A DNA stretch of 8,201 nucleotides from Deltaproteobacteria bacterium. GTDB taxonomy: Bacteria; Desulfobacterota_B; Binatia; UBA9968. Shown piece by piece: positions 1 to 8,201 of the stretch (positions are counted from its first letter, which is position 1; each line of letters opens with the position of its first letter). Where the stretch lies: positions 1-8,201 of the forward strand of contig JAUXIP010000073.1 of the NCBI GenBank assembly GCA_030620935.1, read 5' to 3'. Made by a program: the position numbers and the translations under genes. The notes under the pieces were generated by a model that made no database searches, was not told the DNA's origin, and was given only the letters and a program-made list of their open reading frames with translations.

Positions 1-211
1 CACCGCCGGTGGTAAAAACAAAATCGAATTGTTGGGAAAAGGCGAACGCTTCTTTGCCGATCAATTCAATTTCATCCGGGATGACCGAGATGCGTCGCAC
101 ATCAACACCCAATGCACGGAGTTCGCGGCAGAGAAACCGGGAATTAGTATCATCCGTTTTCCCTGAAAGGACCTCATTGCCGATAATGATGATGCCTGCG
201 GTTTTAGACAT
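1..211 (-). CDS. CinA/MoaB-like molybdopterin-binding-fold protein, N-terminal part
   Basis: Seventy codons are visible from ATG at 211 leftward; the rest lies outside the window. The protein begins with a hydrophobic beta strand (GIIIIGNEVLSGKT, residues 6-19), then N23, a helix with LRALGV (31-36), VIPDE (43-47) and DFVFTTGG (63-70). This order (GxEvLsG, N, ELrxlG, v.D, D.vftTGG) is the signature of the MoCF_biosynth fold shared by MoaB/MogA and the N-terminal domain of CinA (COG1058). Family members bind molybdopterin or ADP-ribose/FAD-type nucleotides; the exact reaction cannot be told from this fragment, nor whether a C-terminal nicotinamide-nucleotide amidase domain follows. ATG 211 sits directly before the fold and has a weak GCAGG ahead of it. 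An in-frame ATG at 268 would add 19 residues (starting MESSVYTSK), which fit no part of the domain, so I prefer 211. It probably shares a transcript with the two leftward genes upstream. Confidence 0.8.
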   Translation of the reverse strand, partial: MSKTAGIIIIGNEVLSGKTDDTNSRFLCRELRALGVDVRRISVIPDEIELIGKEAFAFSQQFDFVFTTGG

Positions 212-335: not shown

Positions 336-476
336 TTAAAAGTAATGGCATTTGGGGTTGGAGCAGATGAGGCTACACTTCTGATCAACGAGCTTCGAGC
401 CGCACACAGGACAGAATTCCCACCAGTTCTCTTGTTGCCCTTGGGGTGTTTCAGATTGCGTCCTCAATGTTTTCAT
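336..476 (-). CDS. Small zinc-ribbon protein (46 aa)
   Basis: The ATG at 476-474 overlaps the TGA of the amidohydrolase (475-473) as ATGA, the classic arrangement for coupled translation. The 46-residue product has a polar N-terminus (MKTLRTQSETPQGQQEN), a WWEF patch (18-21), then C22-P-V-C25-G, KC at 34, C38 and C43-H-Y-F. Two knuckles, C22-x2-C25 and C38-x4-C43, separated by 12 residues, form a plausible four-cysteine zinc site, with C34 as an extra cysteine. The role is unknown; small proteins of this kind are often encoded beside metabolic enzymes and may act as metal-binding accessory factors, but this is inference. The frame continues after the TAA with a sequence resembling the family's usual tail, so the gene may be truncated by a nonsense change. 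The start is supported by the overlap and the reading frame by the cysteine spacing. Confidence 0.72.
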   Translation of the reverse strand: MKTLRTQSETPQGQQENWWEFCPVCGSKLVDQKCSLICSNPKCHYF

Positions 477-1444
477 TTAAAGAGTCTGCTGGCATTTGCT
501 CCCAGAAGTTTTTTCTTGACCTGGGCGGTGGTCCTCGCCTTTCGGATAATCCCGACCGAGTTTTTAAGCAGATCGATTGTCGGAAAGTCGCTTCCCATGA
601 GGACTTGGTTTTCTCCCATCATATGGACGGCAAAGCGAATCTCTTCCGGTTTCCAAAATGGAGGGGCGGTGTCGATGAAGATGCGTTTCTTGTACTTGTC
701 AAAAAATCCCTTGGGGCGCTTATCCCAAAAAGAGGGATTGAGGCGGTTCTTCAGGGCGAAGAAAGCGCCTCCCATGTGGGAGAAGACAAAGCGGAGCTTG
801 GGAAAGCGATCCAAAGTGCCGCTCAACATCAAACGGGCTATGTTGATGGTAGTATCGAAGGCGCGCCCCAGGTTTCTTGTCAGGTTATATTCTTCCATGC
901 CGTGCGGATGGATCAGGGGGATCTCCGAGGCAGGATGGACCACGATCGGGATGTCGAGATCGCAGACGGTTTTATAGAAAGGGTGAAACAGCTCGTCGTC
1001 CAGGAGGACGCCCTGTACATGAGTGTTGATAGCTGCCCCTTTAAATCCGAGATTTGAAACTGCGCGTCTAAGCTCTTTGAGCCCCTCGGCTTCAAGCGGA
1101 GGGACATGGGCGAGCGGGATGATGCGTCCCGAGTATCGCGCCGCAACCTCCGCCATCCGGTCGTTGATGAAGCGAGTGGTCTTAAGATCCATCCAGTCGA
1201 GCCAGACTCCGACATGGAGGACCGCCTGATCCACCCCGGCTTTGTCCATGGCTTTGATCTGATCCTCGATGCGCGAGGTCATCTTCGGGGGAGCAAAGAG
1301 TTGAACCCCGGCACGCCGGATGCGAAAGCGGTCCGGCTCATGGACCACCTCTTCATCCTGGCGCACGTAAAGTTCCGGACGGAGGTAGTGCTCTTCCGGC
1401 ATCCAGTGGTGATGCACGTCGATAATGGGACTCTTTCCCTTCAT
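473..1444 (-). CDS. Amidohydrolase-family (COG2159, ACMSD-like) metal-dependent hydrolase or decarboxylase
   Basis: A 323-residue cytosolic TIM-barrel enzyme of the Amidohydro_2 type. Visible metal-site elements, in order: D9-V-H11-H-H13 at the end of strand 1, H170 in IPIVVHPA, H223 in LRFVFSHMGG, and D286 in MGSDFP near the end of strand 8. Length and spacing match the group containing aminocarboxymuconate-semialdehyde decarboxylase, gamma-resorcylate decarboxylase and many uncharacterised relatives. The substrate cannot be deduced; a small aromatic or carboxylated compound is the usual guess for the family. The ATG at 1444 stands before the MKGKSPIIDVHHH motif and is preceded by a modest AGAAGAG. 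The gene is divergent from the ABC transporter and forms a leftward unit with the zinc-ribbon gene, whose start overlaps its stop. No key metal ligand appears to be missing. Confidence 0.9.
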   Translation of the reverse strand: MKGKSPIIDVHHHWMPEEHYLRPELYVRQDEEVVHEPDRFRIRRAGVQLFAPPKMTSRIEDQIKAMDKAGVDQAVLHVGVWLDWMDLKTTRFINDRMAEVAARYSGRIIPLAHVPPLEAEGLKELRRAVSNLGFKGAAINTHVQGVLLDDELFHPFYKTVCDLDIPIVVHPASEIPLIHPHGMEEYNLTRNLGRAFDTTINIARLMLSGTLDRFPKLRFVFSHMGGAFFALKNRLNPSFWDKRPKGFFDKYKKRIFIDTAPPFWKPEEIRFAVHMMGENQVLMGSDFPTIDLLKNSVGIIRKARTTAQVKKKLLGANASRLFK

Positions 1445-4718: not shown

Positions 4719-6107
4719 ATGAGCGATCTTGCAATCATCGTGCTCGCGGCGGGTTTGGGAAAACGGATGAAGTCCGACCTGCCTAAGGTTCTTCACCCAT
4801 TGGGTGGGAAGCCGCTCCTTCTTCATGTTCTCTCAAAGGCTAAAAGTTTAGAGCCCAAAACCATATCCGTGGTTGTCGGTCATGGCGCCGAGAAGGCCAA
4901 GCGAGTTTGCGACATCGAGGGGATCAGCTGGGTCCTACAACCGGAGCAGCTTGGCACCGGCCACGCAGTAGCCTGTACGAAAGACCTGTTGCAGGATTTT
5001 TCCGGAGAGCTGCTGATTCTCAGCGGCGATGTTCCATTCATCTCGCAGAAAACTTTACGAGGTCTTTTGGGCTGCCACCGGGAATACGGTCTTGAGCTGA
5101 CCCTCTTAACGACCGTTGTCGATCAGCCTTCCGGTTATGGAAGAATCCTGCGCGATGGCAGCAAAGAGATTGTCGGCGTCGTGGAAGAGCGGGACGCTTC
5201 CAAGGCGCAAAAAAGAATCAAGGAAATCAACGCCGGGATCTATATGGTCAGGTCTGGTTTTTTGTTTCCCGCGCTGAACCGATTGACAAACCTCAACAAA
5301 CAGGGCGAGTATTACTTGCCCGACATTATCAAAGCGGCGTTGAAAGAAGGGAGAAAGATCGGAGCGTTTCAAGTAAAGGATGGACTGGAAATCTTGGGTG
5401 TGAATACGAGAGAGGAGCTTGCGATTATGGAAAAGACGCTGCAAGAAAGAATCAATCGGAAATGGATGGAGGCAGGGGTGACATTGAAAGATCCCCACAC
5501 GACCTACATTGAGGATGGAGTCGTGGTCGGAAAAGATACGATCATCGGGCCCAATACCCATCTCTTAGGACGAACGGTTGTCGGAGAACGTTGCCGCATC
5601 GACGGGAGCGCCTATGTGACGGATGGAGATTTGGGCGATGAAGTCCATCTAAGATTCTCGGTCGTGCTGACGAGTTGCCGGATCGATAGCGGTGCCATCG
5701 TAGGCCCCTTCGCGCATCTTCGGCCAGGGACCACGCTCGGCCGCAATGTCCATATCGGAAATTTCGTCGAGACCAAGGAGGCCAAGATCGGCGAGGGAAC
5801 GAAGGCCAACCATCTCACCTATCTGGGCGATGTGACGGTAGGGCGGGAGGCGAACATAGGCGCCGGCACCATCACCTGCAACTATGACGGCTTCAAAAAA
5901 TACCGAACCCGGATCGGCGACCGCGTCCAGGTGGGAAGCGACACGACGTTGGTTGCCCCTATTTCCCTTGCCGACGATGTGTATGTCGCTACCGCAACCA
6001 CGGTCCGACATGACGTGCCCGCCGGCGCGCTGGTTTACAACGAGCGGCAAGAGCGAGTCAGAGAAGGCTGGACCGAGCAAAAACGGAAGAAGATGAAACG
6101 CGAATGA
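4719..6107 (+). CDS. glmU: Bifunctional GlmU: GlcNAc-1-P uridyltransferase / GlcN-1-P acetyltransferase
   Basis: A 462-residue cytosolic enzyme (about 456 in E. coli) that acetylates glucosamine-1-phosphate with acetyl-CoA and then transfers UMP to give UDP-GlcNAc. The N-terminal nucleotidyltransferase shows LAAGLGKRMKSDLPKVLH (9-26, with R16 and K23), QPEQLGTGHAV (74-84), SGDVP (102-106, metal ligand D104), GYGR (139-142), EINAGIY (169-175) and GVNTREEL (227-234). From about 260 onward is the left-handed beta helix with R335, ETK (K353), NHLTYLGD with catalytic H365, and NIGAGTITCNYDG (379-391). Near the acetyl-CoA site the usual A-G-(S/T)-T reads T425-A426-T-T. ATG 4719 is chosen because the next four residues lead straight into the first strand; a GTG at 4707 is in frame but has no ribosome site. 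glmS follows after 295 bp. Confidence 0.96.
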   Translation: MSDLAIIVLAAGLGKRMKSDLPKVLHPLGGKPLLLHVLSKAKSLEPKTISVVVGHGAEKAKRVCDIEGISWVLQPEQLGTGHAVACTKDLLQDFSGELLILSGDVPFISQKTLRGLLGCHREYGLELTLLTTVVDQPSGYGRILRDGSKEIVGVVEERDASKAQKRIKEINAGIYMVRSGFLFPALNRLTNLNKQGEYYLPDIIKAALKEGRKIGAFQVKDGLEILGVNTREELAIMEKTLQERINRKWMEAGVTLKDPHTTYIEDGVVVGKDTIIGPNTHLLGRTVVGERCRIDGSAYVTDGDLGDEVHLRFSVVLTSCRIDSGAIVGPFAHLRPGTTLGRNVHIGNFVETKEAKIGEGTKANHLTYLGDVTVGREANIGAGTITCNYDGFKKYRTRIGDRVQVGSDTTLVAPISLADDVYVATATTVRHDVPAGALVYNERQERVREGWTEQKRKKMKRE

Positions 6108-6402
6108 GAGGCGAGGGGCGGCTTTCGGAGGAATGTTCATTATTTGAGGTCACAGTTGTGTGATGAAAGCCCCACCCGCTCTCCGAGCCCGCGCAATAGG
6201 TCGCTGCTTAATTCCACCGACGGAGTCGGATGCGCGGGCTCTTCGACCGGGCGGCGGCTTTCCTGTCGAGGTCGAGGGGTGCAAGTGTGAGGGTTGCGGA
6301 CGTCCGATTGGGGAGGTTCGACTCATGGTAGTGACCCATCGGCCGCAACCCGAAGGCTTGCGCCCTGAGGGCTCGCTTTGGAACGAATAACGAGCAACAA
6401 TC
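6108..6402 (+). other. glmU-glmS intergenic region, dense in inverted repeats
   Basis: This 295-bp gap has no convincing gene. Open frames on both strands (for example 6160-6390 rightward) lie exactly over the hairpin arms and show no domain. At the left end, GGCTTTC (6120-6126) can pair with GAAAGCC (6165-6171), enclosing a small TCACA-GTTG-TGTGA hairpin (6150-6163). The same GAAAGCC can instead pair with GGCTTTC at 6256-6262, so the two pairings exclude each other. The rest is the multi-hairpin element listed separately. No T-rich terminator and no clear sigma70 promoter was found, and the glmS ribosome site is weak. Confidence 0.6.
6185..6365 (+). ncRNA. Putative structured RNA or palindromic element upstream of glmS
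   Basis: Three consecutive helices can be read off directly. Helix 1: GAGCCCGCGCA (6185-6195) with TGCGCGGGCTC (6231-6241), 11 perfect pairs, enclosing CCGAC-GGA-GTCGG (6217-6229). Helix 2: TCGACC (6243-6248) with GGTCGA (6270-6275). Helix 3 is three-tiered: GGGTGCAAG (6277-6285) with CTTGCGCCC (6357-6365), one G-U type pair; GGGTTGCGG (6291-6299) with CCGCAACCC (6343-6351); and CCGATTGGG (6304-6312) with CCCATCGG (6335-6342), one bulged base, around a 22-base loop. The right arms of tiers 2 and 3 are directly adjacent. The element ends 37 bases before the glmS ATG. It could be a cis-acting leader of glmS, a separate small RNA, or one copy of a dispersed palindromic repeat; strand and ends are not fixed. 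I do not recognise the Firmicutes glmS ribozyme core in it. Confidence 0.5.
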
Positions 6403-8201
6403 ATGTGTGGGATTGTCGGATATATCGGTAACCGCGAAGCGGCTCCGCTGATCTTGGAGAGTCTAAAAAAGCTCGAGTATCGGGGCTACGACTCGGCGGG
6501 GATCGCCGTTGTGAGCGACGGTCGGGCGGTTATCCGACGTTGCGAAGGAAAGTTGAAAAATCTCGAAGAAGCGCTGTTCCAAAGCCCTGTAGATGGAAGA
6601 GTAGGGATCGGTCATACGCGTTGGGCGACGCACGGCCGGCCCTCCGAGACCAATGCCCATCCCCATCGCGTCGGAGACATCGTCGTGGTCCATAACGGCA
6701 TTATCGAAAACTATCTGGAGCTCAAAGAGCACCTGCGTAAGAGAGGGGCCCGGTTTGCCTCGGAGACGGACACGGAGATCGTAGCTCATCTTGTCGATGA
6801 GAAAATCCAAAAAGGAGCGGATTTTCTTGCCGCAGTGCGCCGGAGCCTTAGAGAGGTTCAGGGCTCTTATGCCTTGTTGTTTCTTCATCAACGAGACCCG
6901 GAGCGGTTGATAGTGGCGAAAAATTCCACCCCTATCGTGGTCGGATGGGGAAAGGGAGAGACCTTTGTGGCCTCCGATATTCCTGCCCTTCTGGATTACA
7001 CCCGCAAGATCACCTTTCTAGAGGACGGCGAGGTGGGTGAGGTGACGGCAAAAGGTGTTCGTATCATGAACGGAAAGGGAAAAACGATCAATCGGCCCTT
7101 CAAGGAGATCACTTGGGATGCCGTTGCCGCTCGCAAGGGCGGATACCGCCACTTTATGCTCAAAGAGATCCACGACCAACCTCGGGCCCTGGCCGATACT
7201 TTCCGGGGACGGATCTCGCTCAAAGAAGGCAATGTTTCTTTGGAGGGAGTCGAGCTGAAACCGAGTGAGGCAAAAAGGATCGAGCGGATTCATCTGGTGG
7301 CGTGCGGCACCGCTTGGCATGCCGCCCTGGTAGGAAAGTTCATGCTGGAAGAGATTGCCCACATTCCCGTGGAGGTGGACTATGGATCCGAGTTTCGCTA
7401 TCGAGCGCCTCTGATCAACGCTCGCTCCCTTCTCCTTCTCGTCAGCCAATCGGGCGAGACGGCGGACACCCTTGCAGCAATAGATGTGGCGCGAAGGAAA
7501 AAGACCAAAGTCATCTCAATCTGCAACGTGGTCGATTCCTCCTTGGCGCGCAAGTCGGACGGAGTCTTTTATACCCATGCCGGACCGGAGATCAGCGTGG
7601 CGAGCACCAAGGCTTTCACCACTCAGCTTACCGCCCTCTATCTTCTCTCCATCGGCCTGGGACGTCTGAACGGTCGCCTCAAGAAAGCCGAAGCCCAGAG
7701 GCTGTTAGAAGATTTGATGCATCGACCCCGCTGGGTGGAGCAAGCCTTGGAACTTGAGCCGGCCGTGGAAGAATTGGCCAAGGAACTGGGCGACGCTTCG
7801 GATTTTCTCTATCTGGGGAGAGGGATCAACTATCCGATTGCTCTTGAGGGGGCGCTCAAGCTGAAAGAAATCTCTTACATCCATGCCGAAGGATATCCTG
7901 CCGGCGAGATGAAGCATGGGCCGATAGCCTTAATCGACGAAAAAATGCCGGTGGTCGTCCTCCTGCCCAAAGATCGCTATTTTCAAAAGACGCTCGGAAA
8001 TCTAAAGGAAGTAGAGTCGAGAGATGGAAAGGTTATCGTCCTGACCGATCAGGAGAACAATCCCCGCGAATTATCCGCCTACCGTACGTTGACCGTTCCT
8101 CAAAGCTCCCATTTTCTCACACCTATCGTGCTAGCGATTCCGCTCCAGCTCCTTGCCTATTCCATTGCCGTACATCGCGGAACAGACGTGGATCAGCCGC
8201 G
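6403..8201 (+). CDS. glmS: Glutamine-fructose-6-phosphate aminotransferase (isomerising), C-terminus cut
   Basis: Catalyses fructose-6-phosphate + glutamine to glucosamine-6-phosphate + glutamate, the first committed step to UDP-GlcNAc. 599 of about 609 residues are inside the window. The Ntn-type glutaminase domain opens with MCGIVGYIG, C2 being the nucleophile after Met removal, then EYRGYDSAG (25-33), TRWATHG (72-78), HNGIIENY (97-104) and ETDTE (121-125). Two SIS sugar-isomerase domains follow: ACGTAWHA from 300, SQSGET (348-353), ASTKAFTTQ, then GRGINYPIALEGALKLKE (472-489) and YPAGEMKHGP (498-507, H505). The final visible residues are DVDQPR; the C-terminal NLAKSVTVE-type tail with the catalytic lysine lies beyond the edge. 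The ATG at 6403 is fixed by the obligatory MCGI start; no strong Shine-Dalgarno precedes it, so the hairpin-rich leader may influence its expression. Confidence 0.96.
   Translation, partial: MCGIVGYIGNREAAPLILESLKKLEYRGYDSAGIAVVSDGRAVIRRCEGKLKNLEEALFQSPVDGRVGIGHTRWATHGRPSETNAHPHRVGDIVVVHNGIIENYLELKEHLRKRGARFASETDTEIVAHLVDEKIQKGADFLAAVRRSLREVQGSYALLFLHQRDPERLIVAKNSTPIVVGWGKGETFVASDIPALLDYTRKITFLEDGEVGEVTAKGVRIMNGKGKTINRPFKEITWDAVAARKGGYRHFMLKEIHDQPRALADTFRGRISLKEGNVSLEGVELKPSEAKRIERIHLVACGTAWHAALVGKFMLEEIAHIPVEVDYGSEFRYRAPLINARSLLLLVSQSGETADTLAAIDVARRKKTKVISICNVVDSSLARKSDGVFYTHAGPEISVASTKAFTTQLTALYLLSIGLGRLNGRLKKAEAQRLLEDLMHRPRWVEQALELEPAVEELAKELGDASDFLYLGRGINYPIALEGALKLKEISYIHAEGYPAGEMKHGPIALIDEKMPVVVLLPKDRYFQKTLGNLKEVESRDGKVIVLTDQENNPRELSAYRTLTVPQSSHFLTPIVLAIPLQLLAYSIAVHRGTDVDQP

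What the first reader, a model, noticed from the sequence alone, without database searches (positions are those of the whole stretch)
6185..6365. Strong multi-hairpin element in front of glmS
Within 181 bases there are an 11-bp perfect stem, a 6-bp stem (8 with wobble) and a three-tier helix of 9, 9 and 8 pairs, arranged back to back with little unpaired sequence between them. That is far more pairing than expected by chance in a gap without a terminator. Its place, ending 37 bases before a glmS with a weak ribosome site, suggests control of glmS, which many bacteria regulate by RNA (the Firmicutes glmS ribozyme; GlmY/GlmZ in enterobacteria). The sequence does not show the known ribozyme core, so it would be a different class. 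The alternative is a dispersed palindromic repeat that happens to lie here.
Basis: partly seen in the sequence, partly recalled or inferred. Interest (0 to 1): 0.72.

Follow-up and report, generated by a model that had tools for sequence, protein, structure and literature searches.

The report
Dispersed two-hairpin repeat before glmS
The strongly folded stretch in front of glmS is one copy of a repeated, probably mobile DNA element scattered between many genes of these uncultured bacteria, so it is not a glmS switch, although the way it sits at ribosome-binding sites in the gene's own direction is unusual.

Summary
The pairing is real (z -4.69; whole element z -4.95), but it is not a glmS regulator. 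The gap holds one copy of a family of about 220-265 nt intergenic repeats made of two long hairpins, A (6165-6262) and B (6274-6371). Two related MAGs have over 40 placed copies each, beside varied genes. In 8 of 11 relatives glmU and glmS overlap by one base, leaving no room for it. Stems keep pairing through two-sided changes (20 of 32 pairs). Of 98 placed copies none lies inside a called gene; between co-directional genes 64 point with the genes, 16 against (p 6e-8). At one filled/empty site and one consistent site the insertion lies at the Shine-Dalgarno sequence, with a GGRGGA-like motif on both sides. Best reading: a MITE/REPIN-like non-autonomous mobile element, not described in the papers searched, that enters Shine-Dalgarno sites in the sense direction. 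No mobiliser was found; 21 of 89 Y1-transposase matches examined have no adjacent copy.

The parts
4719..6107 (+). glmU; stop codon at 6105-6107
   Evidence: TIGR01173 glmU 562 bits, cut-off 367; stop position
6108..6126 (+). GC-rich spacer ending CTTTC; resembles the right end of a B module, possibly the tail of an earlier copy (inferred)
   Evidence: by eye, compared with copy ends and tandem-looking copies L079, L082, L083
6127..6134 (+). GGAGGAAT, Shine-Dalgarno-like motif at the left boundary
   Evidence: left-boundary listings
6135..6164 (+). left arm of the repeat; family form about ATRTTCATNATC...GATCACCCTTGACGAT
   Evidence: left flanks of 99 copies read by eye
6165..6262 (+). hairpin A; outer stem 6165-6178 with 6248-6262, inner 11-bp stem 6185-6195 with 6231-6241
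   Evidence: R1 covariance model match 101.2 bits, E 1.9e-21 (this copy was in the training set); folds
6263..6273 (+). linker between hairpins
   Evidence: alignment of 14 full copies and the window
6274..6371 (+). hairpin B; arms 6277-6302 and 6340-6365
   Evidence: alignment A3 of 34 B modules, fold, inverted repeat I3
6372..6390 (+). right end, with CTTTGGAACGAATAA at 6376-6390, the diverged counterpart of the family end CTTTCGGRGGAAT
6403..8201 (+). glmS, cut by the window end
   Evidence: TIGR01135 glmS 811 bits, cut-off 418

Best explanation
The element is one copy of a dispersed, non-coding, two-hairpin repeat that behaves like a non-autonomous mobile element. SHOWN: homologous copies at many unrelated intergenic sites in relatives, absence in most relatives at the orthologous sites compared, kept pairing in both hairpins, no copy inside a called gene, strong sense orientation between co-directional genes. 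PARTLY SHOWN: entry at the Shine-Dalgarno region, with a GGRGGA-like motif on both sides, so that a ribosome site stays in front of the downstream gene (one filled/empty site, one consistent site, a weak statistical test). INFERRED: the folded single strand is what an unidentified transposase or recombinase recognises, and the asymmetric Shine-Dalgarno target fixes the orientation. In this genome the insertion broke the one-base glmU/glmS overlap seen in most relatives compared. Any effect on glmS would be a side effect of insertion, not ligand sensing. The confidence given is for the dispersed mobile repeat; the Shine-Dalgarno step alone is near 0.35-0.5.
For: Copies: best match 85% identity over 218 nt; 12 of 12 relatives match at the loose cut-off E<=10, 9 of 12 at E<=1e-7 (at most 40 candidates scored per genome). 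Model R1 gives 51 matches in G004 and 52 in G010 (rows on both strands counted, but only 53 candidates per genome were scored, so near the cap), 1-6 in six more genomes, 8 of 77 relatives in all, and the same 8 of 148 genomes of the class (27 scored per genome). Absence: one-base glmU/glmS overlap in 8 of 11 relatives; the L054 site is empty in all 5 of 14 genomes where its downstream gene was found. Pairing: 20 of 32 A pairs show two-sided change, shuffled mean 9.5, 0 of 500; slid controls pair 33-42% against 92.4%. Orientation: 64 sense, 16 antisense, 11 divergent, 3 convergent, 4 with one neighbour uncalled, 0 of 98 in genes; p 6e-8. Shine-Dalgarno on both sides: L054, L073 between nuoJ and nuoK; flank similarity within copies above shuffled partners p 0.013, 20 copies.
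Against: No mobilising gene was found. The window's own genome is not held, so copies in it could not be counted. Right and left motifs of the window copy differ (GGAGGAAT against GGAACGAA). Some copies sit at the same site in different genomes (L136/L078/L086, L148/L187, L061/L188, L146/L186), which could mean retention for a function. 30 of 99 rows gave a left anchor in the pattern search; of these 10 of 18 in sense context and 2 of 12 others were Shine-Dalgarno-like, so 8 of 18 sense ones were not. Only 24 of 64 sense copies showed the searched right-end motif, 9 of them 2-16 nt before the called start.
Confidence: 0.85

Rival explanations
1. A dispersed cis-acting RNA: the element works in the transcript, between genes of operons, to set mRNA processing, stability or translation of the downstream gene, and is kept by selection for that.
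For: Sense bias 64 to 16; paired stems with two-sided changes; copies at orthologous sites in diverged genomes, e.g. A core 96 of 100 identical in L078/L086 although the neighbouring genes are 72-78% identical; B stems show G-U more than A-C, 28 to 3 (my count, mostly two columns).
Against: A stems show the opposite, A-C 105 against G-U 29, which is not what sense-strand RNA selection predicts. Downstream genes share no theme by eye (whose output was cut, so not every copy was seen). At the sites compared (glmU-glmS, L054, L055, L073, L180) most relatives lack the element. B is deleted or replaced in many copies.
Confidence: 0.12
2. A REPIN mobilised by a REP-associated tyrosine transposase (RAYT, Y1_Tnp).
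For: Extragenic hairpin with compensatory changes and a GGAG-type motif at its foot (that REPs carry such a motif is recalled); Y1_Tnp matches in 20 of 20 genomes searched.
Against: Of 89 Y1_Tnp matches, 21 loci were examined, including all 8 of the copy-rich genomes G004 and G010 but only 7 of 17 in G001; none has a copy close by, and one B-type copy lies 1.7 kb away in L207. Flanks were cut by contig ends at several loci (e.g. L194, L201, L209, L212). In the REPIN paper each RAYT examined had a REP in its flanks (PMC3116915, passages).
Confidence: 0.12
3. A glmS-specific regulatory RNA of a new class.
For: Position 37 nt upstream of glmS; G008 also has a 38-nt B-like remnant in the same gap, same direction.
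Against: Dozens of copies at other genes; 8 of 11 relatives have no leader; no Rfam match in the gap.
Confidence: 0.02
4. A small gene: the open frame 6160-6390 (76 aa).
For: The frame runs without shift in 12 of 15 aligned copies, with stops only in the last few residues.
Against: Divergence by codon position 0.150, 0.159, 0.114, the third position being the most conserved; frameshifts in L058, L073, L074; no NCBIfam family.
Confidence: 0.01

Closest known systems
CIR repeats (Caulobacter and other alphaproteobacteria)
   Same: Two long hairpin arms joined by a linker, intergenic, not coding (PMC2229807 section 7, read). The window copy holds GANTC at 6223 and 6320, and 23 of 34 B modules contain GANTC.
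   Different: About 110 bp against 220-265; GANTC is absent from 11 of 34 B modules, all of the diverged subfamily; host group differs; CIR sequences were not compared.
REPINs / REP sequences
   Same: Extragenic hairpins, many copies per genome, compensatory changes (PMC3116915, passages).
   Different: No RAYT next to copies at the 21 loci examined; second hairpin B; strong orientation with genes.
ERIC / IRU
   Same: Hairpin repeats in transcribed gaps; effect on mRNA depends on orientation (PMC2229807, passages).
   Different: Different host group; two hairpins; no RNA data here; sequences not compared.
Correia/NEMIS
   Same: MITE-like hairpins mostly mapped immediately upstream of genes; RNase III processing (PMC10969869, passages).
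   Different: Correia have 24-bp terminal inverted repeats and TA ends (PMC2229807 table); by eye not seen in A-B copies.
BOX / RUP / SPRITE (pneumococcus)
   Same: Small repeats, BOX modular, that insert into one another (PMC3049150, passages).
   Different: Those are over-represented between convergent genes (table 1 there); here 3 of 94.

Membership tests
glmS ribozyme (Rfam) or any Rfam RNA | covariance-model match | tested here: not met
   cmscan of the window at E<=1: nothing in the gap; six stretches with copies: no match
MITE | short, non-coding, multi-copy, intergenic | tested here: met
MITE | terminal inverted repeats | tested here: inconclusive
   An A-only copy (L085) has a right arm that mirrors the family left arm; A-B copies end in a direct, not inverted, GGRGGAAT motif (by eye)
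MITE | target-site duplication | tested here: inconclusive
   GGAGGA on both sides of L054 with one copy in the empty site; flank similarity p 0.013 over 20 copies; the motif could also be partly the element's own
MITE | autonomous partner with the same ends | not tested
   only Y1_Tnp genes were examined; DDE or DEDD transposases were not searched
REPIN | extragenic, hairpin-forming, compensatory changes | tested here: met
REPIN | association with a RAYT gene | tested here: not met
   21 of 89 Y1_Tnp matches examined, all 8 of G004 and G010 among them; no nearby copy
CIR | two arms with linker | tested here: met
CIR | conserved GANTC near a loop | tested here: inconclusive
   GANTC in 23 of 34 B modules; loop position not scored
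CIR | sequence similarity to CIR1-CIR4 | not tested
   CIR sequences were not fetched

The most novel reading that the evidence does not exclude
A class of mobile palindromic element whose target is the Shine-Dalgarno sequence itself. Because that target is asymmetric, the element enters with the gene, and a Shine-Dalgarno copy is left in front of the downstream start codon, so that it can spread inside operons with little harm and even stack in tandem at the regenerated site. The folded two-hairpin strand, as DNA or as a guide-like RNA, is what its unknown enzyme reads.
Probability: 0.35. Interest if true: 0.62.

Novelty: new variant of a known kind. Interest (0 to 1): 0.42.

Why it matters
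It removes a false riboregulator candidate and explains a broken glmU/glmS overlap. If the Shine-Dalgarno targeting holds, it shows how a repeat can spread inside operons without silencing them, unlike the pneumococcal repeats that gather between convergent genes (PMC3049150), and it gives a simple test: junction sequences of new insertions. It also warns that strong folding plus covariation upstream of a gene is not enough to claim a regulatory RNA, because dispersed palindromes give both.

Tried and rejected
Coding frame 6160-6390: rejected on codon-position divergence and frameshifts. First ORF caller was misled by antisense open frames; its orientation picture was discarded and replaced by a codon-model caller. 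Replication-strand explanation of the orientation: copies on the same contig are on the same strand in 7 pairs and on opposite strands in 8 (counted by eye), so not supported. RAYT as mobiliser: no copy near the 21 loci examined, except one B-type copy 1.7 kb away. Virus or plasmid carriage: no match to 6121-6390 in the phage or plasmid collections and none for one 22-letter exact pattern in IMG/VR. Guide idea, that the A apical loop pairs with the left boundary: no copy-specific signal (partners shuffled within genome p 0.43), although rows exceed shuffled loop letters (0 of 200); one row of that test, the second copy of L058, was mis-cut by a negative index, is included in those figures and should be ignored. 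G-U against A-C test of which strand is selected: A and B point opposite ways, so undecided. L055 comparison: the 10 relatives shown lack the element after that gene, but are too diverged to place the junction. L180 comparison: no element in the 120 nt upstream in the 9 relatives readable there (L247 starts at a contig end), no clean junction. Papers: seven searches, listings seen, showed no account of this family or of an element that targets Shine-Dalgarno sites; the library holds open papers only.

Full report
What was asked. A reader saw a strongly paired stretch at 6185-6365 before glmS and thought it might be a new RNA class controlling glmS, or else a dispersed repeat.

The stretch folds at -97.9 kcal/mol with z -4.69 against shuffles. 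The genes are glmU (562 bits) and glmS (811 bits) by NCBIfam. The gap from the glmU stop (6107) to the glmS ATG (6403) is 295 nt. No Rfam family matches in it at E<=1, and the simple promoter scan of 6000-6500 found none. Folding 6127-6390 gives two long hairpins with RNA (z -4.95) and with DNA parameters (z -4.73). I call them A (6165-6262) and B (6274-6371).

It is not glmS-specific. The window's own genome is not held, so I found relatives through GlmU (21 loci). Eleven of the close ones (67-85% GlmU identity) have both genes readable. In 8 of these 11 (L003-L007, L010, L011, L020) the glmU stop and the glmS start overlap by one base; L001, L002 and L008 have gaps of 115, 121 and 34 nt. Three distant loci with both genes (L012, L013, L017) have 15-79 nt after the GlmU match and are not counted. 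The L001 and L002 spacers gave no alignment reaching the score threshold with the element queries used. The L008 gap holds a 38-nt remnant like the left half of B, in the same direction, and GlmU there runs into it, so this gap has been hit at least once more, or the window's copy is old.

Copies elsewhere. BLASTN of the gap against 12 relatives' genomes gave matches in 12 of 12 at E<=10, but G005, G011 and G012 only at E above 0.19; the other 9 reach E<=1e-7 (at most 40 candidates scored per genome). The 14 longest copies are 78-85% identical to the window over 213-302 nt with sharp edges. I fetched 120 stretches around matches; two of the first 60 (L096, L109) gave no match when searched again at a stricter cut-off. 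A covariance model of A (R1, 38 copies including the window) gives 51 matches in G004 and 52 in G010 (rows on both strands counted; only 53 candidates per genome were scored, so near the cap), 1-6 in six more, and none in the other 69 of 77 relatives. It hits the same 8 of 148 genomes of the class, with 27 candidates scored per genome and stricter filters. Five genomes (G001, G002, G006, G008, G009) carry a diverged version: a B module about 71-77% like the window's, preceded in 7 of 17 stretches by a hairpin with the same order of motifs as A (judged by eye).

Structure is kept. On 99 A modules 92.4% of pair cells are paired; 20 of 32 pairs have two-sided changes (shuffled mean 9.5, 0 of 500), and slid controls pair 33-42%. 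That alignment was fitted to the model; the independent alignment of 38 gives 9 of 33 pairs with two-sided changes, 4 of 500 shuffles as high. B has 5 of 13 predicted pairs with two-sided changes in 34 sequences. I cannot tell whether RNA or single-stranded DNA is the selected form. In A, A-C mismatches (105) exceed G-U (29) over 27 pairs, concentrated in a few columns; in B, G-U (28) exceed A-C (3) by my count. Palindromes can also be corrected by template switching without selection (recalled, not tested).

It is not coding. In the only long frame, differences per site are 0.150, 0.159 and 0.114 at codon positions 1, 2 and 3.

Where copies sit. With a home-made codon-model gene caller (score 15 or more), 98 copies of A were placed (45 in G004, 42 in G010, 11 elsewhere): 0 with their midpoint inside a called gene, 64 between genes that both run in the element's direction, 16 antisense to both, 11 divergent, 3 convergent, 4 with a neighbour uncalled. 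64 to 16 has p 6e-8; G004 alone 28 to 9, G010 alone 29 to 5. Counting orthologous sites once (L136/L078/L086, L148/L187, L061/L188) leaves 61 to 15. Copies are rarer between convergent genes than other gaps of 60 nt or more in the same stretches and the close loci (3 of 94 against 11 of 91, p 0.03). The 17 stretches of the diverged B set gave 10 sense, 3 antisense, 3 divergent and 1 with no upstream call (lower score limit; 10 to 3 has p 0.09). Same-contig pairs show no strand preference (7 same, 8 opposite, by eye), so gene direction, not replication strand, goes with orientation.

How it got there. For the G004 copy L054 the downstream gene was found in 5 of 14 other genomes, and all 5 sites are empty: stop codon, then GGAGG[AT]TTTGAT[AC], then ATG. 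The filled site has GGAGGA right after the stop, the whole element, then GGAGGA again 7 nt before the ATG. For L073, between nuoJ and nuoK of G006, GGGGGA lies on both sides; 11 of 12 other nuoK loci have short gaps, and L238 (G004) has another palindrome-rich spacer (gene names by reading the translation). Over 20 copies with both ends picked up, left and right flanks of the same copy resemble each other more than shuffled partners (104 against 94.5, sd 4.0, p 0.013); some right ends there were mis-assigned by the pattern. GGTGGA on both sides of L059 and GGGGGAAT on both sides of L162 are the clearest. A Shine-Dalgarno-like left boundary was seen in 10 of 18 sense copies and 2 of 12 others among the 30 of 99 rows with an anchor. 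A right-end motif was found in 24 of 64 sense copies and lay 2-16 nt before the start in 9. I read this as entry at the Shine-Dalgarno site, direction set by that asymmetric target. It would also explain tandem-looking copies (L079, L082, L083) and the window's CTTTCGGAGGAAT just before the left arm. This step is not proven.

Mobiliser. Y1_Tnp matches occur in 20 of 20 genomes, 89 in all. I examined 21 of these loci, including all 8 of G004 and G010; BLASTN with five element queries found no copy near them, apart from one B-type copy 1.7 kb from the domain in L207. Flanks were cut by contig ends at several. Other transposase kinds were not searched.

Comparison with the known. CIR repeats have the closest architecture, REPINs the closest behaviour, and Correia elements share the position upstream of genes (papers seen as passages or one section). 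None fits on all features tested. Searches (listings seen) showed no description of this family.

Verdict. A real feature, wrongly assigned by the preferred reading: a copy of a dispersed two-hairpin repeat, very likely mobile, with an unusual tie to Shine-Dalgarno sites and gene direction.

Noticed in passing
L008 1227-1307: In G008 the GlmU reading frame runs into a B-type remnant that supplies its last residues, and stops 34 nt before glmS.
   Followed up: partly
L078, L086, L136 (gap before a CoxM-like gene, name by reading): Three genomes carry A at the same site; A is 96 of 100 identical between L078 and L086 although the flanking genes are only 72-78% identical, while L136, whose upstream gene is 88% like that of L078, has A at 86%. 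Conversion between copies or repeated insertion is possible.
   Followed up: partly
L076, L078, L081, L083, L147, L172: Other palindromes are nested inside the repeat: a CCTGCCTGCCGGCAGGCAGG-type unit (L081, L083) and an AGATTTGAGATCTGAGATT-type unit (L076, L078, L147, L172), by eye.
   Followed up: no
L001 4135-4249, L002 2892-3012, L238: Relatives have unrelated inverted-repeat spacers with GCTCGTG/CACGAG-like motifs in the glmU-glmS and nuoJ-nuoK gaps, perhaps a second repeat family.
   Followed up: no
window 130-205: Weak fluoride riboswitch match, 17.2 bits against a gathering score of 34; probably chance.
   Followed up: no
L052, L063, L134, L160, L167, L179: Six copies precede genes that read like UbiD-type decarboxylases (by eye from the DNA, no family search).
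   Followed up: no
window 473-1444 (-): Gene that reads like an amidohydrolase (by eye) but matches no NCBIfam model at E 0.001.
   Followed up: no
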